Source: Sacculina carcini
Taxonomy: Eukaryota > Arthropoda > Thecostraca > Sacculinidae
DNA length: 64,000 nucleotides
Assembly: GCA_916048095.2 (NCBI GenBank)
Contig: OU696577.1
Coordinates: 1,356,001-1,420,000 of the forward strand
Reading direction: 5' to 3'
Part shown: positions 27,187 through 59,574 of the stretch, piece by piece
Layout of the letters: each line of letters begins with the position of its first letter
Numbering within the stretch: position 1 is the first letter of the stretch
The notes under the pieces: model-generated
What the model was told of the DNA's origin: nothing
Database searches by the model: none
The model's input: the letters and a program-made list of their open reading frames with translations, nothing else
Translations under genes and position numbers: made by a program

Positions 27187-27270
27187 CTGAGCGTCCTCGG
27201 CCTCGTCGGCCTCCTTGGTGTCCTAGTCTCATGTTACCGTATCCTCCCATTGACAACTGATCAGAATAGC
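27187..27270 (-). CDS. candidate 84-nt exon gamma, RGG-rich
   Basis: Acceptor ctttagtgtacacag and donor CTCAG|gtgagtg are both good. The phase-1 reading is GYSDQLSMGGYGNMR followed by a stretch ending GGRRGRGRS. The local GC content is far above the surrounding introns. Glycine/arginine-rich segments often bind RNA or form disordered, sticky regions; function here is not known. Confidence 0.55.
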
Positions 27271-27633
27271 CTGTGTACACTAAAGAACATTCCAGATGTA
27301 TGTATTGAATATATTAAGGTGACATATAAATACCGAACAAAAGGTCAAGTAATCGAAACAAACGATTAATTGACACTTGCTTCACTTTTCATGATTGCTG
27401 ATAAATATTATGCCCGTTTATGTCATGGTGACGAATTACAAACACAATAAAATACATTACCGAAGGTCGGCCATTCTAGCCACGATTTTGATTTTACCAT
27501 AGATTTGTGGAGTGAACTTCTCCTAAGATTTACGAATACGACTATAACTGGCCAATTGAACCAACACTCATATGAACCACTTGCTTCAACTTGAACACCT
27601 CCTCATATTAAAGACGATCCGCATTGTCTCGGT

Positions 27634-27699
27634 CAGTGGTTCTCAACCTTTTCTCACTGATTCCCCACTTCTTAATGAGCAATCTCTTCATTTTTCAGT
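27634..27699. mobile_element. hAT MITE left-end fragment
   Basis: CAGTGGTTCTCAACCTT followed by sequence matching the MITE at 18375. It is cut off where the RU2 sequence 'tactattaccacc' begins. Confidence 0.55.
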
Positions 27700-28191
27700 A
27701 CTATTACCACCCTACGGTGGTCTCATGTTCTGGAAGTGACCAAAGAATGAAAAAATAAGATTCGAAAGCTACAGAATTCTAGAGAAAAGGACAGTTCGAA
27801 AGAGAATAGTAAAATTAAACAATAAGCGACCCATCCAATAAGTCTCCATAATTTCACTACGCCCACACTCTTCAATGAATAACAAAAACAACAATAAATA
27901 AGAATAAATAATAAAAATAGGTAATCATATAAATGATAATAGTAAAAATAAGTAAATATTAAGTAATTATAATCTTCATTTTGCAGTTTGAAAATGAACA
28001 GATGATAAACATTCATCGTTAATGCACACTTGCTATCTTCTTCGAGAAAACTCAATTGTTCAAAGTAGTCGGCTATAACAACCCTATCAACAAAGAATTA
28101 ATTATAGTGAACTTTTATACGTATTTTATACAGATAACATATAATCATTTAAACTTAGAATACATAATTTGTATCCACATTAATTACTTAC

Positions 28192-28215
28192 CCTGAGGAG
28201 CCAGCCCATCATGAC
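28192..28215 (-). CDS. candidate exon alpha1 (24 nt)
   Basis: Acceptor gattattttcag, donor gtaagtaatt. Phase 1-1; reads (S)HDGLAPQ plus the split codon. It is the short form of the 57-nt alpha exon: it starts like alpha2/alpha3 (HDG) but lacks the PPPY part. Confidence 0.45.
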
Positions 28216-28289
28216 CTGAAAATAATCACATTTCAGTGACTGTGAGAAACATGTATTACCATGATAATGATTACGGTTAAACACCGGAT

Positions 28290-30072
28290 GTTTAGGCAAC
28301 ATGCCATAAATGCTTATATTTGCCTATATCAAGGGGTTTCCCAATAAATGCCTATTTTGCTAATTCGTCTAAAGCTTTGAAAATTTTGTCCCAAAAAATT
28401 ATGAAATGGATTTCAATCAAATAATTGTACAAGCTAAATGTAACCAGTGATGATACTACTAGGCTTTATTTCAAGTTCACTTGACCGATTCTGGACCGAG
28501 CGAAGATAGCGAGTTTATGACTGCACTGTTGCTAAGCTAGATCTTGTAGTTGTATGTCCGTGTGTTGTGCACATACATATTCAGCGCAGTCATTAAGACT
28601 ATAAGGACAGGAAAATTGAAATACCTTAAAGGACCGGAGCCGTTAATTGACGGCTGTCAAATAAGACTTCATTTTTCTTAGCGAATTGTTTCGAAAATGA
28701 TTCGCGATTTACGTTTTCTAGTGAATTAGACAACGATTAATCCAATGGTGATACTAAAATTGAAATCGAAGTTAATGTAAGAGTCGTAAATTAATTTTGA
28801 ATATCCCTACTTTTTTGAAAAATAAAGAATTTTGCACGTTTGTACTGTTAATTTACTAAATATATTAGTTATGTCAATTTAACAACCACTATTTGAAAGA
28901 TCTTTTTATGTTCTATCTAACCATATAATTAAACTAAACATGCTAAGTAATCTCTAACACTATAAGAACCGAAACATTCAACTACGTAAAAGGACAGGTG
29001 TCGTCAATTGACGGCTTAAGGGCTGCTTCATAGGTAAATTTTCCAAAAATTGGTTGTAAATATACTGTTACTTATGGTTTAGATAACGTTAAGTCCAATA
29101 GTGTTAATTAAATTGAGATAAAACATATTTTGGCAGCCGTGATGTCAATTTTAATATTCCATATTGAACAAAAATGATAAAGTTTGCATATTTGGATTAT
29201 TTGGTCGCGTTGAATACTATGGCAATCCAAAAACAATTGTTGGAAAGCTCTTTTGCGTTCTACCAAATAATATAAATATGTTACACTTTACTTGCTACTT
29301 TACAGAAAACAAAACATAATAAATCAGGAAGAACCGCTGTCTTTAATTGGCAGTTTTACCGCTCGAGTATATAACAGTACAGATTTAGTGGATTCGTTTA
29401 GTCAATGAGGGTATATCTCGCAAGTATGTCCATACATAATAGAGGTGTGTATGCACGAAAATCACCTACAACATGGTGCCCTAGACATTTTAGGGTATGT
29501 TCAGGCTGCACTGGGCGTACTTCAGTATCGTATATTGGTTTGTGGGCTTGGTTCTATAGTGAAATTGTACAATTTTGAGGTGCTCTAGTTTTGAGCATTT
29601 TCATTGGTCTTGCACAATACAATATCACTGAATTTGTGCAATAATACGGATAAACAAACAAGTGGATGAGGTAGAAGACGAGTACGCGCTCTTTCGCTTC
29701 CAAGGTGCACGATCTGATGAATCCGATCAGTCAAACTATTGTGATGCCCGAACCCATGCAAACCCCCAATGCCCATCCCGTTTTTCTAAATAATTGTGTA
29801 ATTTAGTTGCCATTATATTTATATTCATGATTCAAAACCATTATTTTCTCATTCTTGTCTGATTCATGTACTCAATTCGTTATTCTTAATAGTGGTTATT
29901 ATGTGTAAAAACATTGGGTAGTATGTTTAATAAAAATAATTGATATCTTGATATTTATGATTGATTGAATAATTTCCATATGTATATCAGTTTTAATAAA
30001 AGCTTATATTTCCCTATTTTGCCAGTTTTATCGTGCCTTTTTGCCTGCCTATTTTGCCAGTTTTAAGTGCCT
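28290..30072. repeat. region bounded by TTAGGCA / TGCCTAA sequences
   Basis: The left side begins TTAGGCAACATGCCATAAATG. The right side ends in repeated TGCCTATTTTGCCAG and TTTTAAGTGCCTAACAAG. Both edges recur in the other RU2 units (left at about 32350, 34310, 35397; right at about 41760-41840). The pattern suggests a non-autonomous DNA transposon, but I found no target duplication. The 63-codon frame at 29585-29776 is not convincing. Confidence 0.35.
28605..29360. repeat. tandem repeat, period about 350 bp
   Basis: 'gccgttaattgacggct' (28651), 'cgtcaattgacggctta' (29001) and 'tctttaattggcag' (29340) head successive diverged blocks that also share 'gaaagatcttttt(at/gc)gttcta' further in. 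Non-coding. Confidence 0.55.
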
Positions 30073-30858
30073 AACAAGAACTGCTAAATACAGGACGTGT
30101 ACGGCCCGATGTCTGCGTCAGCGAGTCACATTTCATTATATTTCAACAACGACAACAACAACATATATTTAATATAGCGCACCTATTTATACACAGGCGC
30201 GAAATAAAACACAGCTGACATAAACATCACAGTAAGCAGGGAGTAGGCACAAATAGGAGAATTGTAGCAAGTTTGCCATTGGCTATCATATTGATATTTG
30301 TAGTCAAGTGTGTTTTGGCCTCGCTGATACATTTAGTGGAATATGTACATCTGTTTGTTTCTCATGTAGTTTCTCATTTGTCTAATTACAGTTTAATTTG
30401 TTTGCATTTAATTAATAGTATTTAATACTTTATTCAGTACTCTGGTAGTACTTGTACTGATTTTTACAAGTCATTTGATTTTCTAATAAGTCATTTGACG
30501 AAAATTATTATATATATCATTTATTATTTCAAATAATAACAAACTACAGTACAAAGTAATTGATTGGGTAATATAATATTTCTATGATTTATTTTAATGA
30601 TTAATAGATTAATATATAAAAGCTGCTCAATAGCCCAATAGACTACATTATATGAGGGTGTAGAATATGTTTAACTTTCACCTATACATAATATTATACA
30701 AAGAAACTTGTATTAAATCAAAATGCAAACAGATTAGATTACAAATAGATGAAGTCAAAATGCGAATGGTATAGATACAAGGGCAACAAAATTCAGGGTC
30801 ATCTGCTTTAGCACGCGTATTAAATATTTATAATATTCCAGCGATATTGCTTGCTTAC

Positions 30859-30894
30859 TGTGAGAAATCGATGGATAATGAAGAGGATAAAAGC
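30859..30894 (-). CDS. candidate exon beta2 (36 nt)
   Basis: Acceptor ttgttaccag, donor gtaagc. Phase 1-1, reading GFYPLHYPSISH. Confidence 0.5.
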
Positions 30895-31704
30895 CTGGTA
30901 ACAACATTTGTAGTGTCAGTGTTAGACATGCAGTACAATAAGAAATGATTCAGCTTTGTCTTTCCTGCCTAACACGATCAGCTTCGTAAAATCTCCCATG
31001 ATAAATACAAAATTATGAAATACTTGATATTAATATTGTTATTGTTATAGCTACCATTACCATTAATGTTGTTATTGTTAATAGTATTATTAATTACAGG
31101 CAAATCCAGTAGCATGGGAAGAGTGCAAGTACTATTACCACCCTACGGTGGTCTCATGTACTGGAAGTGACCAAAGAATGAAAAAATCAGATTCGAAAGC
31201 TACAGAATTCTAGAGAAAAGGACAGTTCGAAAGAGAATAGTAAAATTAAACAATAAGCGACCAATCCAATAAGTCTCCATAATTTCACTCCGCCCACACT
31301 CCTCAATGAATAACAAAAACCAACAATACATAAGAATAAATAATAAAAATAGGTAATCATATAAATGATAATAGTAAAAATAAGTAAATAATAAGTAATT
31401 ATAATCTTCATTTTGCAGTTTGAAAACGAACAGATGATAAACATTCATCGTTAATGCACACTTGCTATCTTCTTCGAGAAAACTCAATTGTTCAAAGTAT
31501 TCGGCTATAACAACCCCATCAACAAAGAATTAATTATAACGAACTCTAATACGTATTTTATACAGACAACATATAATCATTTTGTAGTAACAGTGTGCGT
31601 TGCGATGCCATCATTCGATTGCGATGATGTCACCCTTGTTGAATCACACATAGCTAGAATAGACGGACCTGCAATCGCACGCTGCAGGTTTGCAGAACAA
31701 GCGC

Positions 31705-31935
31705 GCTAGCCTGAGTGTGTATGCGTGCGCGTGTGTGCCTGTGAGTCAGCGCGTATATGCGCGTCTGTGTGCGTGTGTATGCGTGTGTATGCTTGTGCGT
31801 GTGTATGTATGGTCACGTAATCATCTTTGTTGCTAAGCACTATTTGTGCACGCGAACGTATGTGTGTATATGAGTATGTGTATATGCGTGAGTGTGTATG
31901 TGTGCGTGTGTGTGGGTGTGATCGCGTCATCGTCA
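31705..31935. repeat. GT-rich simple sequence
   Basis: Interrupted (gt)n with gcgtgt and tatgtgt variants, lying in an intron of the RU2 array. The open frames full of His/Thr or Cys/Val are artefacts of this composition. The second copy is at 33665-33895. Confidence 0.8.
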
Positions 31936-32215
31936 CTGTTGCCATGCATCTATATGTGGCAATGCATCTGTTGTATATTGGTATGCGTGCATGTGTGTGT
32001 ATGAATCTGCATGTGTCATCGCTGTTGTCACACACATGTTCTTCGAACAAAGCTTGCTATATAATGCGCTATCGGGGAGGAATCGGGGATTGTCTCTTGG
32101 GTTTGCTCGTGTGGAATCGATCTGTGCGTGAAGAAATACATTGTCGTTTTTTTCAACATTTGACGCTACACATTTAAACTTAGAATACATAATTATAAAC
32201 CACATTATTGCTTAC

Positions 32216-32272
32216 CGCTATCCTTTTCTGTGTACGGAGGGGGTGAATCAATGGGAAGCTTCCCATCATGAT
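32216..32272 (-). CDS. candidate exon alpha2 (57 nt)
   Basis: Acceptor gattattttcag, donor gtaagc. Phase 1-1, reading (D/N)HDGKLPIDSPPPYTEKDS. Contains PPPY, a PPxY motif of the kind WW domains bind. Confidence 0.55.
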
Positions 32273-32781
32273 CTGAAAATAATCACATTTCAGTGCCTGT
32301 GAGAAACATGTATTACCATGATAATGATTACGGTTAAACACCGGATGTTTAGGCAAAATGTCATAAATGCCTATATATGCCTATTTCAAGGGGTTTCCTA
32401 ATAAATGCCTATTTTGCTAATTCGTCTGAAGTTTTAACAATTTTGTCCCAAAAAAAAATGAAATGGATTTCAATCAAATAATTGTACAAGGTAAATGTAA
32501 CAGTGATGATACTACTAGGCTTTATTTCAAGTTCACTTGACCGATGTTGGACCGAGCGAAGATAGCGAGTTCATGACTGCATTGTTGCTAAGCTAGATCT
32601 TGTAGTTGTATGTCCGTGTGTTGTGCACATACACATTCAGCGCAGTCATTAAGACTATAAGGACAGGAAAATTGAAATACCTTAAAGGACCGGAACCGTT
32701 AATTTTCTAATATATTCCGTTAATATATAATATATATTTCTATAATATTCCGTTAATATTCTAGCGATATTGCTTGCTTAC

Positions 32782-32849
32782 TGTCAAAAATCGATGAATA
32801 TGAAGGAGGAGGAGCGGTGATGATGTGATGATCACCATTGTGATGAACG
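32782..32849 (-). pseudogene. exon beta3, frame broken (68 nt)
   Basis: Donor gtaagc is intact, but the acceptor reads ttaccaag instead of ttaccag and the exon is 68 nt, not a multiple of three. One frame still contains APPPSYSSI. It probably lost one G next to the acceptor. If used, it would break the reading frame; skipping it keeps the frame. Confidence 0.45.
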
Positions 32850-33664
32850 CTTGGTAACAACATTTGTAGTGTCAGTGTTAGACATGCAGTACAATAAGAA
32901 ATGATTCAGCTTTGTCTTTCCTGCCTAACACGATCAGCTTCGTAAAATCTCCCATGATAAATACAAAATTATGAAATACTTGATATTAATATTGTTATGG
33001 TTATAGCTACCATTACCATTAATATTGTTATTGTTAATAGTATTATTGATTACAGGCAAATCCAGTAGCATGGGAAGCGTGCAAGTACTATTACCACCCT
33101 ACGGTGGTCTCATGTACTGGAAGTGACCAAAGAATGAAAAAATATGATTCGAAAGCTACAGAATTCTAGAGAAAAGGACAGTTCGAAAGAGAATAGTAAA
33201 ATTAAACAATAAGCGACCAATCCAATAAGTCTCCATAATTTCACTCCGCCCACACTCCTCAATGAATAACAAAAACCAACAATAAATAAGAATAAATAAT
33301 AAAAATAGGTAATCATATAAATGATAATAGTAAAAATAAGTAAATAATAAGTAATTATAATCTTCATTTTGCAGTTTGAAAACGAACAGATGATAAACAT
33401 TCATCGTTAATGCACACTTGCTATCTTCTTCGAGAAAACTCAATTGTTCAAAGTAGTCGGCTATAACAACCCCATCAACAAAGAATTAATTATAACGAAC
33501 TCTAATACGTATTTTATACAGACAACATATAATCATTTTGTAGTAACAGTGTGCGTTGCGATGCCATCATTCGATTGCGATGATGTCACCCTTGTTGAAT
33601 CACACATAGCTAGAATAGACGGACCTGCAATCGCACGCTGCAGGTTTGCAGAACAAGCGCGCTA

Positions 33665-33895
33665 GCCTGAGTGTGTATGTGTGCGCGTGTGTGCATGTGA
33701 GTCAACGCGTATATGCGCGTCTGTGTGCGTGTGTATGCGTGTGTATGCTTGTGCGTGTGTATGTATGGTCACGTAATCATCATTGTTGCTAAGCACTATT
33801 TGTGCACGCGAACGTATGTGTGTATATGAGTATGTGTATATGCGTGAGTGTGTATGTGTGCGTGTGTGTGGGTGTGATCGCGTCATCGTCACTGT
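33665..33895. repeat. GT-rich simple sequence, second RU2 copy
   Basis: Near-identical to 31705-31935. Confidence 0.8.
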
Positions 33896-34169
33896 TGCCA
33901 TGCATCTATATGTGGCAATGCATCTGTTGTATATTGGTATGCGTGCATGTGTGTATGAATCTGCATGTGTCATCGCTGTTGTCACACACATGTTCTTCGA
34001 ACAAAGCTTGCTATATAATGCGCTATCGGGGAGGAATCGGGGATTGTCTCTTGGGTTTGCTCGTGTGGAATCGATCTGTGCGTGAAGAAATACATTGTCG
34101 TTTTTTTCAACATTTGACGCTACACATTTAAACTTAGAATACATAATTATAAACCACATTATTGCTTAC

Positions 34170-34226
34170 CGTTATCATGTTCTGTGTACGGAGGAGGTGA
34201 ATCAATGGGAAGCTTCCCATCATGAT
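34170..34226 (-). CDS. candidate exon alpha3 (57 nt)
   Basis: Same splice sites as alpha2. Reads HDGKLPIDSPPPYTEHDN. It differs from alpha2 at four positions, three of them in the last ten bases. Confidence 0.55.
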
Positions 34227-34740
34227 CTGAAAATAATCACATTTCAGTGCCTGTGAGAAACATGTATTACCATGATAATGATTACGGTTAAACACCGGAT
34301 GTTTAGGCAAAATGCCATAAATGCCTATATTTGCCTATTTCAAGGGGTTTCCTAATAAATGCCTATTTTGCTAATTCGTCTGAAGTTTTAACAATTTTGT
34401 CCCCAAAAAAATTATGAAATGGATTTCAATCAAATAATTGTACAAGTGAAATGTAACCAGTGATGATACTACTAGGCTTTATTTCAAGTTCACTTGACCG
34501 ATGTTGGACCGAGCGAAAATAGCGAGTTTATGACTGCACTGTTGCTAAGCTAGATCTTGTAGTTGTATGTCCGTATGTTGTGCACATACATATTCAGCGC
34601 AGTCATTAAGACTAGAAGGACCGGAAAATTGAAATACCTTAAAGGACCGGAGCCGTTAACTGACGGCTGTCAATTAAGACTTATTTTTTTAGCGAGTTTT
34701 TTCTGAAAATTGTAATATTCTAGCGATATTGCTTGCTTAC

Positions 34741-34800
34741 TGTAAGAAATCGATGAATACGAAGGAGGAGGACCGGGGTAGACAACATTGTGATGAAAGC
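34741..34800 (-). CDS. candidate exon beta4 (60 nt)
   Basis: Acceptor gtgttaccag, donor gtaagc. Phase 1-1, reading GFHHNVVYPGPPPSYSSISY. It is 24 nt longer than beta2 and beta5 and carries PPSY (PPxY). Confidence 0.55.
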
Positions 34801-35264
34801 CTGGTAACACAACATTGGTAGTGTCAGTGTTAGACATGCAGTACAATAAGAAATGAATCAGATTTGTCGTTCCTGCCTAACACGATCAGCTTCGTAAAAT
34901 CTCCCATGATAAATACAAAATTATGAAATACTTGATATTAATATTGTTATTGTTATAGCTACCATTACCATTAATGTTGTTATTGTTAATAGTATTATTG
35001 ATTACAGACAAATCCAGTAGCATGAGAAAGGTGTAGAGATTATAATCTTCATTTTGCAGTTTGAAAACGAACAGATGATAAACATTCATCGCTATTGTAC
35101 ACTTGCTATTTTCTTCGAGAAAACTCAATTGTTCAATGTAGTCGGCTATAACAGCCCCATCAACTAAGAATTAATTATAGCGAACTTTAATACGTATTTT
35201 ATACAGACAACATATAATCATTTAAACTTAGAATATATAATTATAATCCACATTACTTGCTTAC

Positions 35265-35321
35265 CGCGAGGATATTGTGTGTACGGAGGAGGTGTACCAG
35301 CGGGAGGCTGCCCAACATCAC
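35265..35321 (-). CDS. candidate exon alpha4 (57 nt)
   Basis: Acceptor gattattttcag, donor gtaagc. Phase 1-1, reading (G/S)DVGQPPAGTPPPYTQYPR. The PPPYT core is kept; most other residues differ from alpha2/alpha3. Confidence 0.55.
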
Positions 35322-35699
35322 CTGAAAATAATCACATTTTAGTGCCTGTGAGAAACATGTATTCCCATGATAATGATTACGGTTAAACACCGGATGTTTA
35401 GGCAGCATGCCATAAATGCTTATATTTGCCTATTTCAAGGGGTTTCCTAATAAATGCCTATTTTGCTAATTCGTCTAAAGTTTTGACAATTTTGTCCCAA
35501 AAAATTATGAAATGGATTTCAATCAAGTAATTGTACAAGCTAAATGTAACCAGTGATGATACTACTAGGTTTAATTTCAAGTTCACTTGACCGATGTTGG
35601 ACCGAGCGAAGATAGCGAGTTTATTTCTGCATTGTTGCTAAGCTAGATCTTGTAGTTGTATGTCCGTGTGTTGTGCACATACACATTCAGCGCAGTCAT

Positions 35700-36073
35700 T
35701 AAGCGTTTGTAGTGGCAGAGCCGCTGGTTTAGCTATAAACGAAGGTTTTGCCTGCCAATCATGTTGCTAAGTTTTCAGCGTGAACTGTGTATTGAATGAG
35801 AGTAGCTACGAGTGTGAACGAACGAGCTAGAATAACGTTCAACATCTGTCAAAATTATCAGCCTATCCGACCAAATCAATGCAACAAGGTCTTATGCTCA
35901 TCAAATCAATCATTTCGAATTTGTCCCACGTGATCCGAACAATAGAAGAACAGACACCATTGGAGACCGCATTGACAGAGTTGAACTCCGCTCTACATAG
36001 CATAAAACAAATTCCTAGTGATAATGGGCGTGCTACACAGGTGAAGCTCAGAAGCGCACTCAAGGAAAATTAA
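35700..36073 (+). pseudogene. possible hAT transposase tail
   Basis: The open frame at 35879-36073 contains SIISNLSHVIRTIEEQ, then LTELNSALHSIKQI and VKLRSALKEN. The spacing resembles a helical region found in some hAT-type transposases. The match is by eye only and weak. The sequence 35707-36300 is unique within RU2. Confidence 0.3.
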
Positions 36074-36330
36074 GATTTTGTGCAACTCCGATAATTATAA
36101 GCTCACTGAAGGCGAAAACTTAGGATCTGAACCTAATATTGGATCAGATATATCAGATCAGACAATTGGATCAGATACAATTTTCTTACATACTTTTAAT
36201 ATGTTCCAATTACGTCCGTGATCGTTGAATGAATTATTCACTTTTCCATTTCTGTTGCCCGATCGTGAGCACAATTTTACTTTCAAAAAATGTTGCTATA
36301 GTGGTTATTATGTGTAAAAACATTGGGTAG

Positions 36331-36512
36331 TGTTGCGGTGTTGAGTAGTTTCATGATCTGGCATCACTGTGTATTTCGCTGCATTTGCGCCGACATGGAT
36401 TGTTTTGGGATTGTGAAGTTGTAGTGTTGTTTTCTGGTATTATTAGAGTTTTCCCTACATGTCTGTCTGTCTGTCTGTCTGTTGTCTGGTGGTTTTGATT
36501 GAAAACACAACA
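36331..36512 (+). repeat. 5' LTR of Gypsy 1
   Basis: Starts TGTTGCGG and ends CACAACA. Contains a (gtct)n run near 36461-36484 that the 3' LTR lacks. Confidence 0.9.
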
Positions 36513-36710
36513 GAAATGGCGACGAGGATATTTTAAATATTTTTGAGTGAAATTCTGTATATTCTATATGGTTTAGTGGATCTGATGTTTTCTCATGGAT
36601 GAAACAGGGAAGTTTTTTGGTGAATGGTTGCGGGTATTTTTGAGTGAATGTTTGCCAACTATTTTTTACATTTTGTTCTATATCTTGCATAGAATAAAAT
36701 TCTTCCAAAA

Positions 36711-37775
36711 ATGGCAGAAGTTGCAGAATTGCTGAGGTTATTGCAGAAGCAGATGGAAAACCAGCAAAAACATATGCTTGAACACCAAGAACAGATGAGG
36801 TCATTGGTGCAGGCTTTCACTCAGTGCTCAAATGCAAGTACAAACGCAGCCACTCCATCTTTCACTGTCTTTGATTCAACTTCCGAACTTTGGGCAGATT
36901 ATTGGACCAGATTTTGTACTTTTTTGGCTGCTAACTCAGTTCCTGAAGATAGGCAAGCAAAGGTGTTCCTAACAAATCAGTCGCCTATAACATACAAACT
37001 CCTAGCAAATCTTGCTGCTCAGGAAAGTCCTCCAAAAGAGATAAACTCTTTATCCATTAAAGAGATCACTGATTACATGGCAGATCAATTTGATCCCAGG
37101 CGTTTTGTCATCAGGGAGCGCTACAAATTTTGGAGCGACAATAAGCGCAAGCCGGGAGAGACAGAACAGGAGTTGGCAGCCCGCATCCGTCAGGATGGAG
37201 CAACATGCAACTTTTCAGCAATTACAGATCCACAAGATGAAGCAATGCGGACCAGATTTATATGCTCTATCGGAAATGAGGCAGTTCTGAAGTCTTTCTT
37301 CAAGATGAAGGACGAGGGGTTAACGTTTGCTAAGGCAATTCAGGCCGCAGCTGAAGTCGAGGAGGCAGCGCAAGTCGCTAAAGAGACGGTATATGGTAGC
37401 GCTAAGCCAGTCAATGCGGTGAATGAGAAGAAGCCAAGCAAGCAACGTTCAAGATCAGCAGATTCACGTACCAGCACTAGTGTCACTGTGCAGTGCTACA
37501 GGTGCGGCAAGAATGGACATAAGGCTAATGTCTGTCGTCACATCAATGTGCAATGTAATTTTCGTAAAAAGAAGGGACATTTGGAGGTGTTCTGCCGAAA
37601 AAAGGAGAACTCGAGGGCTTCAGTGAAGAAAATCTCCAAAGAAGAGATTGTCAATCGTGTCTCAGTGGATAATGTGAGAGTTCCCAAGCTGGAAGTGGAT
37701 TGTCGAGATAGATGGTACGATGTGCACTATGGAATTGGACACGGGGGCTGGCGGAAATTTTCTAAGCCGAGATAA
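36711..37775 (+). pseudogene. gag of Gypsy 1
   Basis: It starts MAEVAELLRLLQKQMENQQK, a coiled-coil-like start, followed by a capsid-type region (WADYWTRFCTFL). Near residue 262 a zinc knuckle C-x2-C-x4-H-x4-C is intact (CYRCGKNGHKANVC). The second knuckle has lost one cysteine (CNFRKKKGHLEVFC). Around 37715 the frame shifts: the protease that should follow reads in another frame. Confidence 0.9.
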
Positions 37776-38526
37776 CTGGATGAAACTCGGAAAACCATCC
37801 TTACAACCAGTTCAGGCTCGTTATGAGTCGGCTTCAAAATATGAGATGTCAATTCTGGGCCGTTTTGTTAGCCAAGTGAGGACGGAAGCTGGTATTGTAT
37901 GTCAAATTTTATTGTGTCGGATGTCAGTGGACTGAACCTGTTGGGCAGAGATGCTATCGCAGCAATGAAGATCTCGGTGGATGAAGTGGTGCACCATCTC
38001 AGTCAGAGACCTGACACCGATCTTTCTGTCTACAAAGTGGATGAAAACGCGGCACTGAAATCCATTCAGAAAGCCTGTCATGACTCATGTGCTGAATACA
38101 AGGAACTGTTCAGTAACGAACTTGGTTGCCTGAAGGATGTAGAATTGGAGATACAATTCAAAACCGATTCCGAACCAATCTTTCGCAAGCCCAGAACGGT
38201 TCCATTTGCCATGCAAGACGATTTGTTCCATGCTTACGAAGCTGGTATCAAGAAGGGCATATGGAAACCCATTCAGTTCAATGACTATGGTACCCCAGTA
38301 GTACCCATCAGAAAGCAGGGAAATGCCGAGTCATCAATCAGGGTATTTGACGACTATTCCGCCACGGTATATCCGCAGTTGGAACCCCACAGGCATCCAT
38401 TACCAACTGCAGAAGAGCTGATGAGTAAGCTTCACGGAAGTTTCGGCTTTTCAAAGATCGACTTGGCGGACGCGTATCACCAGATACGATTGGGACCGGT
38501 TAGCCAGAGGCGATTAGCGCTAAGTA

Positions 38527-38867
38527 GCGCTTCTGTGGACTCCGTGGTGTAGTTGTTAGCACACCCGCCTCACAAGCGGGAGGTCCGTGGTTCAAATCCC
38601 GGCGGAGCAGAATTTCATTGGGCGAATTCTACAATCCCATAGCCCCTGTCCACCCAGCAGAAAATGATGGTACCAAATATCAGTCATGAGTTGTGCCATG
38701 CATTCTGGGGAGGTGGCCTCTCTAATACGTCTTACGTCCTTGTGGCGCCATAGCGTGGAGAGGGTCGGTTCTGCGGTGGCAGCGAGCTGCACGGGGCACA
38801 CCTGTGTGTTCATAAGCTTCGGCTTCTTCCCGTGTAGCAGCTGCCACTTAGGCATTTAACCTTTATT
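38527..38867 (+). mobile_element. SINE with tRNA-Val head, inside Gypsy 1 pol
   Basis: 341 bp flanked by a 6-bp duplication, taagta (38521-38526 and 38868-38873). Removing the insert and one repeat restores the RT reading ...RLALSTHKGVLLQKR in frame, which proves insertion. The head is tRNA-Val-like; the body is unrelated to the SINE at 39540. Confidence 0.8.
38539..38609 (+). tRNA. tRNA-Val(CAC)-like sequence (SINE head)
   Basis: Anticodon arm CCCGC-ctCACaa-GCGGG with anticodon CAC; A box TGGTGTAGTTG and B box GGTTCAAATCC. The acceptor stem pairs at six of seven positions. The T stem has two mismatches. Its position as the head of an inserted SINE argues for a tRNA-derived promoter rather than a working tRNA gene. 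Confidence 0.5.
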
Positions 38868-39539
38868 TAAGTACACACAAGGGAGTACTGCTTCAGAAGC
38901 GACTACCTTTCAGTATCACATCCGCGCCCGGGTATTTTCAGCGCATTATGGAACAAATTACTTCAGACCTGCCTGGGGTAGTTGTCTTTCTCGACGACCT
39001 TCTGGTGAGTGGTGCAGACGAAGTCAGCCATTTGAGGAATCTGCGAGGTCTGCTACAGCGACTCCACGAGAGCGGTTTGAGATGTCGTCTGAGTAAATGT
39101 CGATTCGCGGAATCCAGCGTGGAATACTTGGGCCACGTGTTGTCGATGAATGGCGTATCGAAAAGCTCAAAGGTGGATGATTTGATCAAACTACCGTGTC
39201 CGACAGACGTACCAAGTCTGAAGTCTTTTCTTGGCTCCGTGACATTTTACGGGAAGTTTCTGAAAAATGTGTCGACTGTTGCCGAACCGCTATACAGCCT
39301 TTACAAAGCCGGAGTTTCCTGGTCTTGGAGTCAAAGCCAAGAGAAAGCGTTCGACCAACTGAAGAAAATGATAGCCGAAGATGATTTACTGGCACGTTTC
39401 GATTCAAAGATACCCATCGGGATAGCATGTGACGCTTCGAGTGTTTGAATTGGCGCAGTGCTTTTCCACCGATTTCATGACGGCAGTGAGCGTCCAATAG
39501 CCAACGCGTCGAAGACCCTTACGGATTGCCAGAAGAGGT

Positions 39540-39844
39540 CCGCCTCGTAGCCGAGTGGCTAAGACGCACGCTATGTGCACGAGAGGTCCAGGGTTCGATT
39601 CCCTGGCGAGGTGAAACGGATGGGTTCGTTTCTTAAAGTGATAGCCCAATTGCCGCAAGGCGGGTTTCGTGTGCGCGCAGCCGTACAGTTTTCTGTGCTG
39701 GCCGCGACTGCGATAACCTGTGTGGCGGCCGGACCTGCGGTGTGCCAGCCGGGGCCGTGAGGCTTTGCCCCCGCAAAAGTACACGCGAACACAGCCTTCT
39801 CTACTGCTGTGTTCAAATGCGTAATTATATATTAATATATTATA
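39540..39844 (+). mobile_element. tRNA-derived SINE, full-length head
   Basis: Same family as 21821-22106 but with a complete head: stem GCCTCGT pairing with GCGAGGT, A box TAGCCGAGTGG, B box GGTTCGATTCC. It has an AT-rich tail. It interrupts the RNase H region between QKR and YSQVHREALA. No clear target duplication is seen. Confidence 0.85.
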
Positions 39845-41496
39845 TACAGCCAAGTACATCGGGAAGCTTTGGCAATTATTTTTGGTATTCGCAAGTCTTC
39901 ACAGTACTTGTATGGTCGGGAGTTCGTGTTAGTAACGGACCACAAGCCGTTGCTGGCACTGTTTTCACCGACGAAAGGTACTCCAGTTATGGCAGCAAAT
40001 CGTTTGGCACGCTGGGCTCTGGAACTAGGCCAGCACCGGTACGATTGAATACCGGAGGACTGCAGATCACGGGAATGCTGACGTTTTGAGCCGACTACCC
40101 AGTGATCAAGACACCGTTTTCGATAAAGAAGAAGACGGGAAGGATGTTGATACGGTCTATGCGGTGAATCTGATCAATGGTCAGGTAAGGGAAGCCAACG
40201 CATTGTCCATTCAAGCGGAATCTGCCAAGGACAAGGTGATAGCGACTGTCATGCGTTTCAGTCGCGAAGGATGGCCAAGGGATAAGACCGAAGATAGCGA
40301 CATCGAAGTTTTCCGAGGGTCAGCTACTTCGTTGTCGACATCATCCGGATGTTTACTTTATGGCTCCCGGGTAGTAATACCTGCTGTCTTACGTCCACAT
40401 GTTCTATACTTCATGTACAATACTTCATTCGGGACATATGGGCATGGTGCGGATGAAACAACTCGCCCGAACAGCAGTATACTGGCCTCATATTCATTCC
40501 GATATTGAGAGCACATGTCGGAAATGTTAATCTTGTGCGGAACAGCAGAATCGTCCGTCGAAGGCGGCGATCCAACCGCGGATGATGCCGGAAAAGGTCT
40601 GGAGTCGAGTACACGTGGACCATGCGATAAATGTTTTGGGCACAAATTGGTTGGTTATGACAGATGCGCTGTCGAAACATCCTTGTATACATGCTACACC
40701 AACGATTACAACGAAGGATACCATTGACCTTCTGGAAGAAGAGTTTTCCCATTTCGGACATCCGCACGCGATAGTTACCGACAACGGACCTTCATTCACC
40801 AGCGGAGAGTTCAAGGCATGGTGCGCGGAGAGAGGGATAGTACACCTCACTGGTGCACCGTACCATCCCGCCACTAATGGAGCGGCAGAAAGGCTTATAC
40901 AGACTTTTAAGCAGTCTATGAAGATGTCACAGCTGCCAGTGAAGAAGGCTCAGTCTACATTTCTCATGCATTATCGTACAACTCCAACATCTTGCGGGTT
41001 TTCACCAAGTGAACTCCTAAACGGTCGTCAATTGCGTACCAAGCTGGATACTTTCCTGCCATCACCTGTTCATGTGACTCAGAGCAAGCAGGCGAAGGAG
41101 GCAACAAAGGCGCAGTCTCGTGAGGACGTTGCGAAGGTGGCTCACTCGTATGATGAAGGTGATGTTGTCTATGCTTTGTACTGCGGACCTCAGCGTGAGC
41201 GCGACCCCCGTTGGGTCCCAGCCGTCGTACTGAAGCGTTTGGGTACTCGGAGTCTGAATGTGAGAGTGGTGCCACGGGGTCCAGTATGGCGCCGCCATGT
41301 AGAGCAGCTGCGCCCGAGGTACGGAGCGGAGTTGGATGACGACCCGGGAGAGGCACCCTGTCAATCTCAAAAAGATGTGCAGGAACCAAAAATGACGAGG
41401 AAGAGAGTTCGATTTGCGCCGACATCTGAGTTCGGACCAGGAAATCCTCGGCGTTCTAAACGGACTCCCAAGCGTAAGCACTGTGCGTACTGTTGA
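39845..41496 (+). pseudogene. RNase H end and integrase of Gypsy 1
   Basis: RNase H continues with REALAIIFGI, VTDHKPLLALF and HGNADVLS. The integrase zinc region (QLARTAVYWPHIHSD then CRKC) is in a shifted frame with a TAA. The core (40582-41496) has all three catalytic acids in context: VHVDHA, VTDNGPSF and NGAAERLIQTF. The C-terminal DVVYALYCGP...RWVPAVVLKR part is open to the stop at 41496. This is the best-preserved part of the element. Confidence 0.9.
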
Positions 41497-41541
41497 TGTT
41501 TTGTTGAGCTTCACCTAATGTTTTCATATTTCGCGGGGAGG

Positions 41542-41703
41542 TGTTGCGGTGTTGAGTAGTCTTATGATCTGGCATCACTGTGTATTTCGCGACATTTGCG
41601 CCGACATGGATTGTTTTGGGATTGTGAAGTTGTAGTGTTGTTTTCTGGTATTAATAGAGTTTTCAATACATGTTGTCTGGTGGTTTTGATTAAAAACACA
41701 ACA
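41542..41703 (+). repeat. 3' LTR of Gypsy 1
   Basis: TGTTGCGG to CACAACA, preceded by the purine tract gcggggagg. Confidence 0.9.
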
Positions 41704-41708
41704 GGTAG

Positions 41709-42600
41709 TATGTTTTATCAAAATAATTGATTAATTTCCATATCTATACCAGTTTAAATAAATGCCTATATTTGCCTATTTTGCCAGTTTTATAGCGCCT
41801 TTTTGCCTGCCTATTTTGCCAGTTTTAAGTGCCTGACAAGGACTGCTAAATACAGGACGTGTACGGCCCGATGTCTAACAGATGTACATATTCCACTAAA
41901 TGGTCTGTCTTTGGTGATGTAAATGGTGTAATAGGTCTGTCGGTAATGTCAGCGAGTCACATTTCATTTTATTTCAACAACCACAACAACAACATATATA
42001 TTAATATATAGCCCACCTATTTATACACAGACGCGAAATAAAACACAAGTGACATAAACATCACAGTAAGCAGGAAGTAGGCCCAAATAGGAGATTTGTA
42101 ACAAGTTTGCTATCATATTGCTATTTGTAGTCAAGTGTGTTTTGGCCTCGCTGATACATTTAGTGGAATGTGTACATCTGTTCGTTTCTCATGTAGTTTC
42201 TCATTTGTCTAATTACAATTTATTTTGTTTGCATTTAATTAATAGTATTTAATACTTTATTCAGTACTCTGATAGTATTTGTACTGATTTTTACAACATA
42301 AGGATTTTCCATTTATTTCATTATAAATCATTTGACGATTTTTTTTTATATAAAACATGTATGATTTCAAATAATAACAAACTAGAGCACAAAGTAATTG
42401 AATGGGTAATATAATATGTGTATGATATATTTTAATGATTAATAGATTAGTATATAAAAGCTGCTCAATAGCCCAATAGACTAAATTATATAAGGGTGTA
42501 GAATACGTTGAACGTTCACCTATACATAAAATTATTCAGGGTCAAAAGCAACAAAATTCAGGGTCATTTGTTTTAGCACGCGTATTAAATATTTTTAATA
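41709..42600. other. RU2 sequence without a gene
   Basis: Continues the RU2 sequence seen at 29925-30850, including the TGCCTATTTTGCC repeats (41760-41840). No exon candidate found until 42624. Confidence 0.6.
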
Positions 42601-42623
42601 TTCTAGCGATATTGCTTGCTTAC

Positions 42624-42659
42624 TGTGATGGTTCGGTGCATACGGAGGAGGATAAACGC
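42624..42659 (-). CDS. candidate exon beta5 (36 nt)
   Basis: Acceptor ttgttaccag, donor gtaagc. Phase 1-1, reading GVYPPPYAPNHH with a PPPY motif. Confidence 0.55.
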
Positions 42660-43160
42660 CTGGTAACAACATTTGTAGTGTCAGTGTTAGACATGCAGTA
42701 CAATAAGAAATGATTCAGCTTTGTCTTTCCTGCCTAACACGATCAGCTTCGTAAGATCTCCCATGATAAATACAAAATTATGAAATACTTGATATTAATA
42801 TTGTTATTGTTATAGCTACCATTACCATTAATGTTGTTATTGTTAATAGTATTATTGATTACAGGCAAATCCAGTAGCATGGGAAGAGTGCAAGTACTAT
42901 TACCACCCTACGGTGGTCTCATGTACTGGAAGTGACCAAAGAATGAAAAAATAAGATTCGAAAGCTACAGAATTCTAGAGAAAAGGACAGTTCGAAAGAG
43001 AATAGTAAAATTAAACAATAAGCGACCAATCCAATAAGTCTCCATAATTTCACTCCGCCCACACTCCTCAATGAATAACAAAAACCAACAATAAATAAGA
43101 ATAAATAATAAAAATAGGTAATCATATAAATGATAATAGTAAAAATAAGTAAATAATAAG

Positions 43161-43409
43161 TGTGCGAGTGCTAAGCTGTAGTAGCCAATCCTGCCAAGAG
43201 ATGGCGCCCGCAGTCTATTCCATGCGTTGGCGTCGCCATGGGAACGGATGATGAATCAGTGTGCGCACAGCAGTGGCCTTGAGTGCAGTGACGTTATTAC
43301 GGTTCGAGTGAGAGGTGTGTGTATTGTGTCGCAGGTGTTCATGTGTTATCGTGTTAATGTATTTTTGTATAGTCAAGTGTTCTCGTCAATAAAGATCCAG
43401 ACCAAAACA
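43161..43409 (+). repeat. 5' LTR of Gypsy 2
   Basis: TGTGCGAG to CAAAACA. An AATAAAG polyadenylation-like signal lies near its end (43389). Its last base is the A of the gag ATG. Confidence 0.9.
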
Positions 43410-46161
43410 TGGCGCAGCCTACATCAGCCGAAACCAGTGCGCAGCCTACATCAGAGCTGAACGAAGCGGTCAATCGATTCGCGTGGAGTGGGAAAATTGT
43501 TCCTCCAACAAAACTGGACTTATCTGTCGATCGAAGGGAGTCATTCAGCATATGGCGAGAACGCTGGAACGATTACGTTCTGCTTTCAGGACTCAGAAGC
43601 CAAAGTCGTGCAATTCAAATGGCGGTCTTACGGTCGTGTCTAAGCGACGAATCTCTGCGAATTGTCAAAAGTCTCGACATTCCAGAGGCCGACCGGGACA
43701 AAATCGACACAATTCTGCAACACCTGGACATCTACGCCAAAGGGCAAGTAAATGAGGTGATCGAGAGGAAAAATTTTAACTCTCGAAAACAAAACGCCGG
43801 TGAAACTTTTGATGATTTTCTCATTAGCCTGCGAGAACTGAGTACCTCGTGCAACTTCTGTGACACCTGCAAGGACAGCCTCGTTCGAGATAGAATCGTC
43901 ATGGGCATACAAGACTCGTGCACGATCAAGAAGCTGTGCAGCGTCAATAATTTGAAGCTGTCTATGGCTGTGGACATCTGTCGCGCAGAAGAAGCTGCCT
44001 GTCGTGACACCGAACGTATAGAGACCGACAGAGTCAACCGCGTATACGGCGTCGGAGGACACCGACCCAGACATCAAAGGTCTGGAACCACCTCAGAGCA
44101 ACGTGAGTGCAGCCGCTGTGGGAGGCAACACACGCCTGAAAACAAATGTCCGGCACGTGATCAAGAATGCAGACGATGTGGGAAACTTGGACACTTCGCC
44201 AAGAAATGTCGCACTGCGATGGGGAAAAACAGTGACAATAGACGGAGAAACAAGTCGCCAGACGACAAACCCGTGCCAGCTGCGATAGTGTCGAGCGTCA
44301 CGTCGCTCAGAGCACCACGTGTGGACGTCGTAGTTGACGGGTGTATCACCGTTTCGGCTCTTCCAGACACTGGAGCAGACATAACTGTCGCCGGTCTGGA
44401 CGTGCTCAACAAATTCGAGGACGAGAACAATCTGCGGCCAAGCACCGATCAGCCAGTGTCAGCTGACGGATTCCGCATGGAGCCAGTTGGAGTCTGCCCG
44501 ACTACAATCGCCATCGGCGGGACAGAAGTGAGTGTGGACATCCACGTCATCAAAGGAGTGACTGGGTTGCTGCTCTCTTGGCACGTTTGTCGGGCTTTGA
44601 AACTGATTCCGAGCGATTGTCCTTCGCAAATGCAGACGCCGGTCGTAAGAAGCGTCACCGAGCGCAAATCCCAACGGGAATCGCCATCGTCAGTGGACAA
44701 CCTATTCGACGAAATTCCAGACGTCTTCAGTGAGAATCTTCTGTCACGTTTCCCGACATCATCACTACAAGAGTCTGAAGACACCGAGGAAGAGACGACC
44801 ATCGTGGCATGTGTAGCCGCTGAACCTGACATGTCAGACACCAACTTGCAGCAGGTTGGGAGTGCAAGTTCTTCCGACTCGGAAATGCAGATACATCGAA
44901 AAGTCATCTTGGATGGTTTTCCGGATCGCAAAGGCGATATGGACCCCATGATCCAGCCATATTGGACTGTGCGTGAACGCCTATCAGTGGAGGATGATCT
45001 TGTCTTCTACGGTCGACGACTTGTGATTCCGAAGGCGTTACGACGGGGAATCCTGAACGAGCTACACGCAAGTCATGCGGGTAAAGAGAAGACGAAACAG
45101 AGAGCTAGCCAGGTTGTGTATTGGCCAGGAGTGGACAATGACATCGACAACATGACGAAGCAATGCACGACATGCCAAAAGTACTTACCATCGCAAGCCG
45201 CCGAGACTATCAGACATCACAAACAAGCCTCTCGACCTTTTGAGTTCGTTTCCATCGACTTCTGCGAGTATGGAGGGCACAAATTCGTTGTGTTGGTCGA
45301 CCACCTCTCTGGATGGCAGTTTGTTAATGACCTGGGCTCATCTTCAGTGACGGGGAAGCTGCTCGACACATTACGGACCGTGTTCTGCATGGTGGGTGTG
45401 CCGGTAACCATATACTCCGATGGAGGCCCCAGTTCACGTCAGGAGAGTTCGTCCGATTCGCTGAACGTTGGAAATTCGAACACGTGCGTTCCTCACCACA
45501 CTATCCGCAATCCAATGGGAGGGCGGAGGCAGCGATCAAGACGGCGAAAGCACTCATCAAAAAGTGCTGGAAGGCGGAAAGAGGAGGATTTGATCCTGAT
45601 GAATGGTCAAAGGGAATTCTCCAACAAAGAAACACTCCAGGACCGGACGGAAGATCTCCAGCCGAGATACTCTATGGACGACCAGTGCGGGACATGATTC
45701 CTGCACATAGACGCCAGTTCTCTGCGGAATGGCAGAAATCGAGCGAGGAAGCTGAGTATACAAGGCGCGAACAACAGACAAACGTGGACGAGAGGTACGA
45801 CGGACTTGCCAAAGACCTGCCAGACCTGAGCCCGGGAAATCATGTGACGGTGCAGTGTCATATCACAAAGGAATGGAGCAGGTACGGTGTGGTCGTCGAA
45901 AGCCTGGCGCACAGGCGCTACCTCATCAAGTTGTCGAGCGGACGTGTGGTCTCTCGAAACCGACGACACATTCGTCGCCGGTACGGTCATGTGCTGAGAC
46001 GAGATCCGGAGCATCCGACGCTCCAGTCGACCGACGAGGCGCCGAGTCCAGAACCGTGTTCAACGCATCCACAACTGCGGAGGTCTACCAGAGAACGAAG
46101 ACGTCCTCAAAGACTCATCGAAGTGATGCGGACGTCTAGGGGGGCGTGTGCGAGTGCTTAG
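43409..46161 (+). pseudogene. gag-protease-integrase of Gypsy 2, RT/RNase H deleted
   Basis: Frame one runs from ATG 43409 to 45697. It starts MAQPTSAETSAQ; a gag domain is followed by zinc knuckles near residues 232-265 (CSRCGRQHTPENKC; CRRCGKLGHFAKKC). The protease site LPDTGAD is near residue 316. After FDEIPDVFSENL, where RT should begin, the sequence jumps to LSRFPTSS, the end of the usual RNase H-integrase linker. Integrase follows: HASHAGKEKTKQRASQVVYWPG with CTTCQK, SIDFCEYGG and YSDGG. One missing C in the run at 45427-45430 shifts the frame. The rest (NGRAEAAIKTAKALI with the glutamate, and the C-terminus) continues in frame to 46161. Otherwise well preserved. Confidence 0.9.
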
Positions 46162-46395
46162 CTTTAGTAGCCAATCCTGCCAAGAGATGGCGCCCGCAGT
46201 CTATTCCATGCGATGGCGTCGCCATGGGAACGGATGATGGAGCAGTATGCGCACAGCAGTGGCCTTGAGTGCAGTGACGTTATTACGGTTCGAGTGAGAG
46301 GTGTGTGTATTGTGTCGCAGGTGTTCATGTGTTATCGTGTTAATGTATTTTTGTATAGTCAAGTGTTCTCGTCAATAAAGATCCAGACCAAAACA
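46147..46395 (+). repeat. 3' LTR of Gypsy 2
   Basis: Matches the 5' LTR except at six sites (about 97.6% by eye count). Confidence 0.9.
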
Positions 46396-46626
46396 ATAAG
46401 TAATTATAATCTTCATTTTGCAGTTTGAAAACGAACAGATGATAAACATTCATCGTTAATGCACACTTGCTATCTTCTACGAGAAAACTCAATTGCTCAA
46501 AGTAGTCGGCTACAACAACCCCATCAACAAATAATTAATTATAACGAACTTTTATACGTTTTATATACCAATAACACAATCATTTAAACTGAAAATACGT
46601 AATTATAATCCACATTAATTGCTTAC

Positions 46627-46683
46627 CGCGATCACGTTCTGTGTTCAGAGGAGTTGAACCATTATGAAGCTGCCCAACATCAA
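46627..46683 (-). CDS. candidate exon alpha5 (57 nt)
   Basis: Donor gtaagc; acceptor gattattttaag, with AG kept but the usual C before it replaced by A. Phase 1-1, reading (V)DVGQLHNGSTPLNTERDR. The PPPY core has become TPLN. It could be a weak or dead exon. Confidence 0.4.
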
Positions 46684-47035
46684 CTTAAAATAATCACATT
46701 TTAGTGCCTGTGAGAAACATGTATTACCATGATAATGATTACGCTTAAACACCGTTCACCGTTCAAACGACGTTCAATTAATGTTGCTGTCCTATTTTTG
46801 AATTATTCCCTCATTGTACCGTTCAGATAGAGGTGTCGTTCAAACCGAGGTTTTACGGTAAATGAACCAGCATGAGTAACAATGATGTCAGGGTGAACCG
46901 AGAATGTATAGAATACATGAATGGTGTCAGCAAAATTGGTGTATAGGTTTGTGTTTTGTATGTTTGCAAGTTTGCCAGACTGTTTGGTTTGTTTAAAACT
47001 AGCTGTATTGTTACTGTATCAGCGACAACAAGCAA

Positions 47036-47073
47036 TCATTCAGAATCTTGGATTTGACCAAGTAGACTGTCAC
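47036..47073 (-). CDS. candidate terminal exon e5, RU1-C
   Basis: Same as 1596-1633: GDSLLGQIQDSE and TGA in phase 1. Confidence 0.35.
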
Positions 47074-47562
47074 CTGGGAAAGAGCTAGGTAAAATCGATA
47101 GTCCACGCACACAATAAACTTTAAACTCAACATAGCACAAAAGTGTGAGTGCAACCAAAGAGTGGGGAATTCATCTAGTGGAGGTTGAGCTAAAATCCTC
47201 GTGGCACACATCCGGCGTTGATGGGACGACGACCAAAACACTATACCGCCACTTACAACTTATAATTCTACTTAATTCTACAAAAGCAACTAATAGAGGG
47301 GCAATTGGACAACACAACTGATTTGTCATGGTCCTGGTTGTAAGCTGTAGGCGATGTAGTCGTGTTGGTTTCACGTTGTGTATGTGGGTGTAGTGCATTT
47401 AGGGTGGCGTGCGGTGCACTGGTGACAATGGTGTGAGTAGTTCTGTGGAAAATTGCAAAAGTTGCAACTCAAGTGAGGTTTATCCTGGTTCACGTAATTC
47501 ACGTGTTGATCGATAGGTAATGTGAAGATTTCACACAAATTTACATAGTTAGGCATAGTTAC

Positions 47563-47583
47563 CAGCTTCAATTCCCTGTTTGC
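47563..47583 (-). CDS. candidate 21-nt micro-exon e4, RU1-C
   Basis: Identical to copy B: GKQGIEA, acceptor ttcttttcattcag, donor gtaact. Confidence 0.5.
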
Positions 47584-47900
47584 CTGAATGAAAAGAAATC
47601 AACCGGCGGTTTGAAATATCAGTCAAAGCTTTTCATCACTTTGACTGTTTACGGACCTATATCGTAAATTTCGTTCTTTCTCCCTCGTTTGTTCCATATT
47701 GTTTTATGTGCTAAATTCCCCTTGTATAAAAGTTTTCCGACGACATACATTGACAAGAATTCCTGCTGTATTGTGGTGACTGCGGATCAATACTCTGGTC
47801 ACCCGCTCAACTCGTGCATGGTGCATGGTGAGACCATGTGTCTTCCAGGTCAGTTTTTTGCAGTTTTTTTGTTTGAACCTCGTCGGTACCCGCCACGGGG

Positions 47901-48353: not shown

Positions 48354-48436
48354 TCGGTGCTCCGAACCTGGAGGGGAGCTGTGGGCAAAGCCTAAATATT
48401 CATCTATGCTATTTAATTTACATACAGAACACTCAC

Positions 48437-48484
48437 CCATCGTGGCGTACTTCATACATTCACACAAATGTTTTAGCAATATCA
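48437..48484 (-). CDS. candidate 48-nt exon e3, RU1-C
   Basis: Open in phase 1: (V)ILLKHLCECMKYATM. One residue change from copy A, with the same splice sites. Confidence 0.35.
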
Positions 48485-48864: not shown

Positions 48865-48876
48865 CAGCATTGATGC
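48865..48876 (-). CDS. candidate 12-nt micro-exon e1, RU1-C
   Basis: Encodes GINA instead of VIKA; acceptor and donor unchanged. Three of 12 bases differ while the flanks are nearly identical. Confidence 0.35.
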
Positions 48877-50509: not shown

Positions 50510-50536
50510 CCCAAGTATGACTCTTCTCTTCCTAAA

Positions 50537-59566: not shown

Positions 59567-59574
59567 AGGGGAGA

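What the first reader, a model, noticed from the sequence alone, without database searches (positions are those of the whole stretch)
27187..46683. Hidden minus-strand array of in-frame micro-exons in the RU2 repeats
Ten short intervals have an acceptor and donor, and nine are multiples of three (24, 36, 36, 57, 57, 57, 57, 60 and 84 nt). All share phase 1-1 and have no stop in that phase. Two types alternate (alpha, beta) along the repeats and end with an RGG-like exon. The open-frame view misses them because each is only 8-28 codons. The arrangement fits a gene built from interchangeable micro-exons, as in schistosome micro-exon genes. That it is transcribed is inference.
Basis: partly seen in the sequence, partly recalled or inferred. 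Interest (0 to 1): 0.88.

Follow-up and report, generated by a model that had tools for sequence, protein, structure and literature searches.

The report
Fast-evolving micro-exon gene array
A stretch of repeats in an unnamed, probably arthropod genome hides about twenty tiny exon-like pieces that look like parts of one or a few unknown genes whose protein is changing unusually fast, in the style of known parasite and aphid micro-exon genes.

Summary
In detail: all ten minus-strand intervals exist, nine are multiples of three, all are open in phase 1-1. The array continues upstream: 22 copies (12 alpha, 7 beta, 3 RGG) in C9:1383187-1483708. Substitutions support coding: pN/pS is 3.08 in the proposed frame, 0.68 and 0.83 in the others; 1 of 400 column shuffles reaches the observed value. 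In two of four recent duplicate pairs exons hold a strong excess of differences; in one the excess is weak, in one there is none. Most likely these are translated, rapidly diversifying, individually skippable PPPY-type modules ending in an RGG module. Architecture resembles schistosome MEGs and aphid bicycle genes; homology to neither is shown. Two protein searches found no homologue; genome searches found no exon-bearing copy elsewhere apart from one weak protein match. First exon, true 3' end, transcription and species remain unknown.

The parts
46627..46683 (-). alpha micro-exon, 57 nt, DVGQLHNGSTPLNTERDR; weak AAG acceptor
42624..42659 (-). beta micro-exon, 36 nt, VYPPPYAPNHH
35265..35321 (-). 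alpha micro-exon, 57 nt, DVGQPPAGTPPPYTQYPR
   Evidence: its 3' end differs from the c2 duplicate at 6 sites
34741..34800 (-). beta micro-exon, 60 nt, FHHNVVYPGPPPSYSSISY
34170..34226 (-). alpha micro-exon, 57 nt, HDGKLPIDSPPPYTEHDN
32782..32850 (-). beta micro-exon with shifted acceptor (CAAG): 69 nt in register, 68 from the present AG; probably skipped or dying
32216..32272 (-). alpha micro-exon, 57 nt, HDGKLPIDSPPPYTEKDS
30859..30894 (-). beta micro-exon, 36 nt, FYPLHYPSISH
28192..28215 (-). short alpha micro-exon, 24 nt, HDGLAPQ
27187..27270 (-). RGG exon, 84 nt, YSDQLSMGGYGNMRLGHQGGRRGRGRS; strongest donor of the array; reading through the donor gives 11 codons and a stop, with AATAAA 195 nt past the donor, so it may also serve as terminal exon
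   Evidence: three copies in the genome
27697..36300 (-). main block of the repeats, with units of about 1.95 kb, that carry the micro-exons
36693..41496 (+). retroelement remains inside the array (interrupted frames), opposite strand; Ty3-like by eye
   Evidence: only a weak zinc-knuckle match in the two frames scanned
43373..46161 (+). second retroelement remains inside the array (zinc knuckle, protease-like and integrase zinc-binding matches); Ty3-like by eye

Best explanation
The intervals are real coding micro-exons of one orphan gene, or of up to three tandem copies of it, on the minus strand of C9:1383187-1483708. Every micro-exon begins at codon position 2 and ends at codon position 1 (one copy excepted, whose acceptor has moved), so any can be joined to any other, skipped or duplicated without breaking the frame. 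The product would be a cysteine-free, probably disordered chain of modules of 7-22 residues, many with PPPY or PPPSY (by recalled motif knowledge, WW-domain ligands), ending in a 27-residue Gly/Arg-rich RGG module. The array grows by segmental duplication, and its exons gain amino-acid replacing substitutions and in-frame length changes at a high rate. Shown: positions, phase, openness, copy number, frame-specific excess of replacing changes. Inferred: transcription, splicing, alternative inclusion, disorder, and an arms-race role (host-parasite effector, immune or mating protein).
For: Ten of ten intervals present. Candidates far above shuffles and controls. 22 copies, 16 distinct sequences: 0 of 16 have a stop in phase 1, against 5 of 16 in phase 0 and 12 of 16 in phase 2. 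Pairwise gap runs in exons 25 of 25 multiples of three, in flanks 57 of 325; at least three independent exon length changes. pN/pS 3.08 in phase 1 against 0.68 and 0.83; column shuffles mean 0.95, 1 of 400 reach the observed value. Duplicates c1 vs c2: 14 differences in 141 exon nt, 37 in 9256 elsewhere; c2 vs c3: 6 in 150 exon nt, 10 in about 11570 elsewhere, or 51 in 13445 if the transposon-block end is kept. Beta: upstream intron 0-5% different in 10 of 11 bins (13% in the bin next to the exon), exon bins 13-42%.
Against: No RNA evidence of any kind. No convincing first exon or signal peptide in the 66 kb upstream. No homologue in two protein searches, though that database holds arthropod proteins. 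One of 22 copies has a shifted acceptor, and three have weak acceptors (two identical AAG copies and the c1 RGG copy). Copies are related, so counts are not independent, and site counts are small. Of four duplicate pairs, one shows no difference in its two complete exons (13 outside them) and one only a weak excess in the RGG exon (6 of 84 vs 79 of about 2030, odds ratio 1.9, P 0.15). For alpha only the 60-80 nt before the exon are conserved (1-7%); farther out the intron differs by 17-22% and the 45 nt downstream by 12-23%, near the exon's 23-29%, so alpha replacing sites exceed distant intron only about 1.6-fold.
Confidence: 0.8

Rival explanations
1. The exons are coding, but their clustered differences come from short gene-conversion tracts or exon-focused mutation, not from many selected point changes.
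For: In c1 vs c2 the RGG cluster covers 55 nt and runs 9 nt into the intron (3 of its 12 differences lie in the acceptor region), and the alpha changes sit in the last 13 nt of the exon. The c2 alpha end resembles, with 2 mismatches in 16, that of the 34170 copy. The excess is uneven among duplicate pairs, as single tract events would give.
Against: Among the copies listed none matches the c2 tracts exactly, and only three RGG copies are found in the genome. A tract mechanism alone does not explain a pN/pS of 3 in one frame only.
Confidence: 0.2
2. The array is a relic: exons of a once active gene, copied by duplication and no longer expressed.
For: Heavy transposon load, one shifted acceptor and three weak ones, no promoter-side exon found.
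Against: Young duplicates (0.1-0.4% difference outside exons in c1-c2 and c2-c3) carry replacing changes, so the process was active recently; 0 of 16 distinct exons has a stop in phase.
Confidence: 0.1
3. A non-coding tandem repeat whose unit by accident holds splice-like GT-AG pairs; open frames follow because all copies descend from one unit.
For: All copies are duplicates of three types; a 57-nt interval is stop-free in a given frame by chance about 40% of the time (own arithmetic, equal base use).
Against: Frame-specific pN/pS, exon gaps all multiples of three, excess of candidates over shuffles, exon differences above flanking intron in beta and in two young duplicate pairs.
Confidence: 0.05

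Closest known systems
Schistosome micro-exon genes (MEGs)
   Same: Many small exons, mostly multiples of three (6-81 bp), with long introns, and products in which Pro is well represented (passages of PMC10526429); transposon-rich genes and raised dN/dS, slightly above 1 in the mature part of three MEGs (passages of PMC4350168).
   Different: MEG products share an N-terminal signal peptide, not found here; MEG exons are mostly 15 bp, here 24-84 nt; the genome looks like an arthropod's, not a flatworm's; no sequence homologue found. Here the exons recur as two alternating types plus a Gly/Arg exon.
Aphid bicycle and megacycle genes
   Same: Many micro-exons, almost all starting at codon position 2, the same phase as here; extremely strong positive selection reported; a megacycle gene has 118 exons in about 100 kb and a repeating protein (passages of PMC9168663).
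   Different: No CYC motif: the modules here hold no cysteine. Reported from aphids, phylloxerans and scale insects; a telomere-to-telomere chromosome of 10.7 Mb (C9) does not suggest an aphid (recalled). No homologue found.
Accelerated segment switch in exons (ASSET) of snake venom genes
   Same: Short stretches of exon changed radically between gene copies, beside accelerated point change in coding regions (abstract of PMC2711939).
   Different: That is a mode of evolution of venom protein genes, not a gene family related to this one; the exons here are micro-exons without cysteine.

Membership tests
Schistosome MEG | Most of the coding region made of small exons with lengths that are multiples of three | tested here: inconclusive
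   9 of 10 window exons and 21 of 22 copies are multiples of three, but the rest of the gene is unknown, so 'most of the coding region' cannot be judged
Schistosome MEG | N-terminal signal peptide exon | tested here: inconclusive
   None convincing in minus-strand scans of C9:1382000-1550000 and 1483800-1549500; first exon not found
Schistosome MEG | Flatworm genome and sequence relation to MEG families | tested here: not met
   TTAGG at both ends of C9, the four named hits of a neighbouring gene are arthropods, no protein homologue
Schistosome MEG | Alternative splicing of micro-exons | not testable with these tools
   no RNA data
Bicycle genes | Many micro-exons, internal exons starting at codon position 2 | tested here: met
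   all 22 copies read open in that phase (one with a shifted acceptor); frame supported
Bicycle genes | CYC motifs | tested here: not met
   no cysteine in any alpha, beta or RGG translation; some bicycle homologues also lack clear CYC motifs (PMC9168663)
Bicycle genes | Strong positive selection | tested here: met
   pN/pS 3.08, small sample of related copies
Bicycle genes | Salivary-gland expression, secreted product | not testable with these tools
   no RNA data; no signal peptide exon found

The most novel reading that the evidence does not exclude
An independent arthropod invention of a micro-exon gene: an orphan locus of about 100 kb in which phase 1-1, cysteine-free PPPY modules and alternative RGG terminal exons are diversified exon by exon, by selection and exon-confined tract replacement, while near-exon introns stay alike, giving a germ-line diversified and splice-combinable protein repertoire.
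Probability: 0.3. Interest if true: 0.85.

Novelty: new variant of a known kind. Interest (0 to 1): 0.66.

Why it matters
Genes made of tiny exons are easily missed by gene finders, and the known examples (schistosome MEGs, aphid bicycle genes) sit at host-parasite interfaces. A third, apparently unrelated case with the same exon phase as bicycle genes and the same kind of rapid change would suggest that phase-uniform micro-exons are a recurrent way to build fast-changing proteins, and the young duplicates here let one ask directly whether exon change comes from selection or from tract replacement.

Tried and rejected
Signal-peptide first exon: a strict scan (12 candidates, 8 of them from repeat blocks or GT-repeats) and a relaxed scan (17 rows) gave nothing I find convincing; the one with the best donor, C9:1493784-1493730 (MYYVFMCACVCSHVYTCN), comes from a GT-rich stretch and is not excluded. 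Other upstream exons: splice-site scans to 1550k gave only isolated candidates. Downstream, a 39-nt phase 1-1 candidate at C9:1354277-1354239 (EHDGKGNRRRRG) is suggestive but single and unsupported. The long open frames just upstream look like transposons by eye. Rfam at gathering thresholds found one tRNA-like stretch, inside a retroelement (whole window), and nothing in L015-L017. I rejected near-exon intron as neutral reference for alpha, because only the 60-80 nt before the exon are conserved. I also rejected the claim that exons outrun introns in every duplicate: it holds strongly in two of four pairs.

Papers: passages only of PMC9168663, PMC10526429, PMC4350168 and PMC9582164; outline and abstract of PMC2711939; all others seen only in search listings. 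Recalled, from no call: the splice matrices, the PPPY/WW-ligand and RGG labels, TTAGG as arthropod telomere, aphid chromosome sizes, the hAT and Ty3 labels given by eye, and the Pax6 label.
Full report
WHERE IT IS. The window is C9:1356001-1420000 of a 264-Mb, 43-contig genome. C9 has TTAGG repeats at both ends, and the genome holds 19,781 matches to a 30-base TTAGG pattern, many of them overlapping. A single-exon cytochrome b5-related desaturase frame 65 kb below the array has 21 hits, of which the four that bear an organism's name are arthropods, at 33-43% identity. I take it as an arthropod or close relative, species unknown.

THE OBSERVATION. The ten intervals are real and have the lengths and phase stated. 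The tenth, non-triplet one is 32850-32782, whose acceptor has moved by one base (CAGG to CAAG). A scan of the non-transposon part of the array gives 10 open phase 1-1 intervals of 20-90 nt; 200 dinucleotide shuffles give a mean of 0.7 and a maximum of 4, the plus strand 0, and two control stretches 0.5-1.6 per equal length on their two strands. The thresholds were chosen after I had seen the exons and are the same in all controls. A stricter scan gives 3 against a mean of 0.29 in 100 shuffles, whose maximum was also 3.

THE WHOLE ARRAY. It continues to C9:1483708. I count 12 alpha, 7 beta and 3 RGG copies, 16 distinct sequences. DNA searches with alpha, beta and RGG stretches find exon-bearing copies only at this locus: matches elsewhere, where there are any, cover only flanking repeat sequence (in one search, 40 of 42 candidates were scored, only 40 of 2616). 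A protein search at E up to 10 finds eleven matches here and one weak match elsewhere, at E 0.85. The locus is built of recent segmental duplications: 1391039-1404633 and 1435149-1448740 are 99.57% identical over 13.6 kb, and 1429278-1438669 and 1466616-1476015 are 99.35% identical over 9.4 kb. Two retroelements on the plus strand sit inside the array, and the first of these duplications includes both.

THE CODING TEST. In phase 1, 0 of 16 distinct exons has a stop; in phase 0, 5 of 16; in phase 2, 12 of 16. Exon length differences are all multiples of three (25 of 25 pairwise gap runs; flanks 57 of 325; pairwise counts are not independent, and the exon changes go back to at least three events). 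pN/pS over alpha (8 sequences), beta (2, of 36 nt) and RGG (3) is 0.283/0.092 = 3.08 in phase 1, 0.68 in phase 0 and 0.83 in phase 2. RGG alone gives 1.59 in phase 0, so it contributes less to the contrast. Shuffling alignment columns gives a mean of 0.95, and 1 of 400 shuffles reaches the observed value. The short alpha, the longer betas and identical copies were left out of this count. A repeat that is not translated has no evident reason to prefer one frame in this way.

EXONS AGAINST INTRONS. I compared four duplicate pairs. c1 against c2: 51 differences in 9401 columns, 14 of them in 141 exon nt (odds ratio 27, P 1e-14); three more lie in the acceptor region next to the RGG exon and are counted as outside. 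c2 against c3: 57 differences; up to 1402760 there are 6 in 150 exon nt and 10 in about 11,570 elsewhere (odds ratio 48, P 3e-8); I cut there because the remaining 41 differences lie in a transposon block, and with them kept the odds ratio is 11 (P 4e-5). c3 against c1 on the RGG side: 85 differences, 6 of 84 nt in the RGG exon, odds ratio 1.9 (P 0.15), or 2.6 (P 0.04) without the divergent first 200 nt. 1388842-1391028 against 1479139-1481326: 13 differences, none in the two exons wholly inside, one in the 9 nt of the 32850 beta exon that the segment includes. So the excess is strong in two pairs, weak in one, absent in one. In beta, upstream intron differs by 0-5% in 10 of 11 bins and by 13% in the bin next to the exon; exon bins differ by 13-42%. 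In alpha the 60-80 nt before the exon differ by 1-7%, but farther out the intron differs by 17-22% and the 45 nt downstream by 12-23%, close to exon values of 23-29%; so for alpha the claim that exons outrun introns holds only near the exon and for replacing sites (30%, against 10% at silent sites).

HOW IT LIKELY WORKS. Uniform phase makes every module skippable. The protein would be a string of short PPPY-type modules ending in an RGG module. Reading through the RGG donor gives 11 more codons, a stop, and AATAAA 195-196 nt past the donor in all three copies, so RGG exons may be terminal exons, either of three tandem genes or as alternative ends of one gene. I cannot separate these, because no first exon was found for any of them. 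Rapid replacing change points to an arms-race role; which one depends on the biology of an unnamed species.

WHAT IS KNOWN. Schistosome MEGs and aphid bicycle genes share the architecture, and bicycle genes also the exact phase (PMC9168663, passages). Membership is not claimed: CYC motif not met, flatworm origin not met, signal peptide not found, no sequence homologue in two protein searches. I saw no paper describing a gene of this kind in the listings of my searches, which cover open-licence papers only.

Noticed in passing
window about 23800-26100: About 2.3-kb insertion present in copy c3 but absent at the matching places of c1 and c2, flanked by CTGATAAC on both sides (8-bp duplication, hAT-like by recall); holds minus-strand frames within 24348-25728, two of which were scanned without a Pfam hit.
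   Followed up: partly
window 38538-38609: tRNA-like sequence (Rfam tRNA, 50.6 bits) in a gap between the frames of a retroelement; perhaps a tRNA-derived short element inserted there.
   Followed up: no
window 1-18200 and 46768-62700: Repeated composite blocks spaced about 8.1-8.9 kb, long matches mostly 93-99% identical, one frame with a weak reverse-transcriptase match; copies also to the right of the window.
   Followed up: partly
window 55076-59566: Uninterrupted 1,496-residue retroelement frame (reverse transcriptase, RNase H, integrase matches) in a G+C-rich stretch (about 60%).
   Followed up: no
C9:1306134-1321453: Two tandem single-exon cytochrome b5-related desaturase frames (the first confirmed by Pfam; the second by eye), next to frames that look by eye like parts of Pax6 (no Pfam hit in the two scanned).
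   Followed up: partly
whole genome: Very many internal TTAGG arrays, both strands, besides the ends of C9.
   Followed up: no
C9:1354239-1354277: 39-nt phase 1-1 candidate exon EHDGKGNRRRRG with a strong acceptor, 29 kb downstream of the last RGG exon; might be a further exon.
   Followed up: partly
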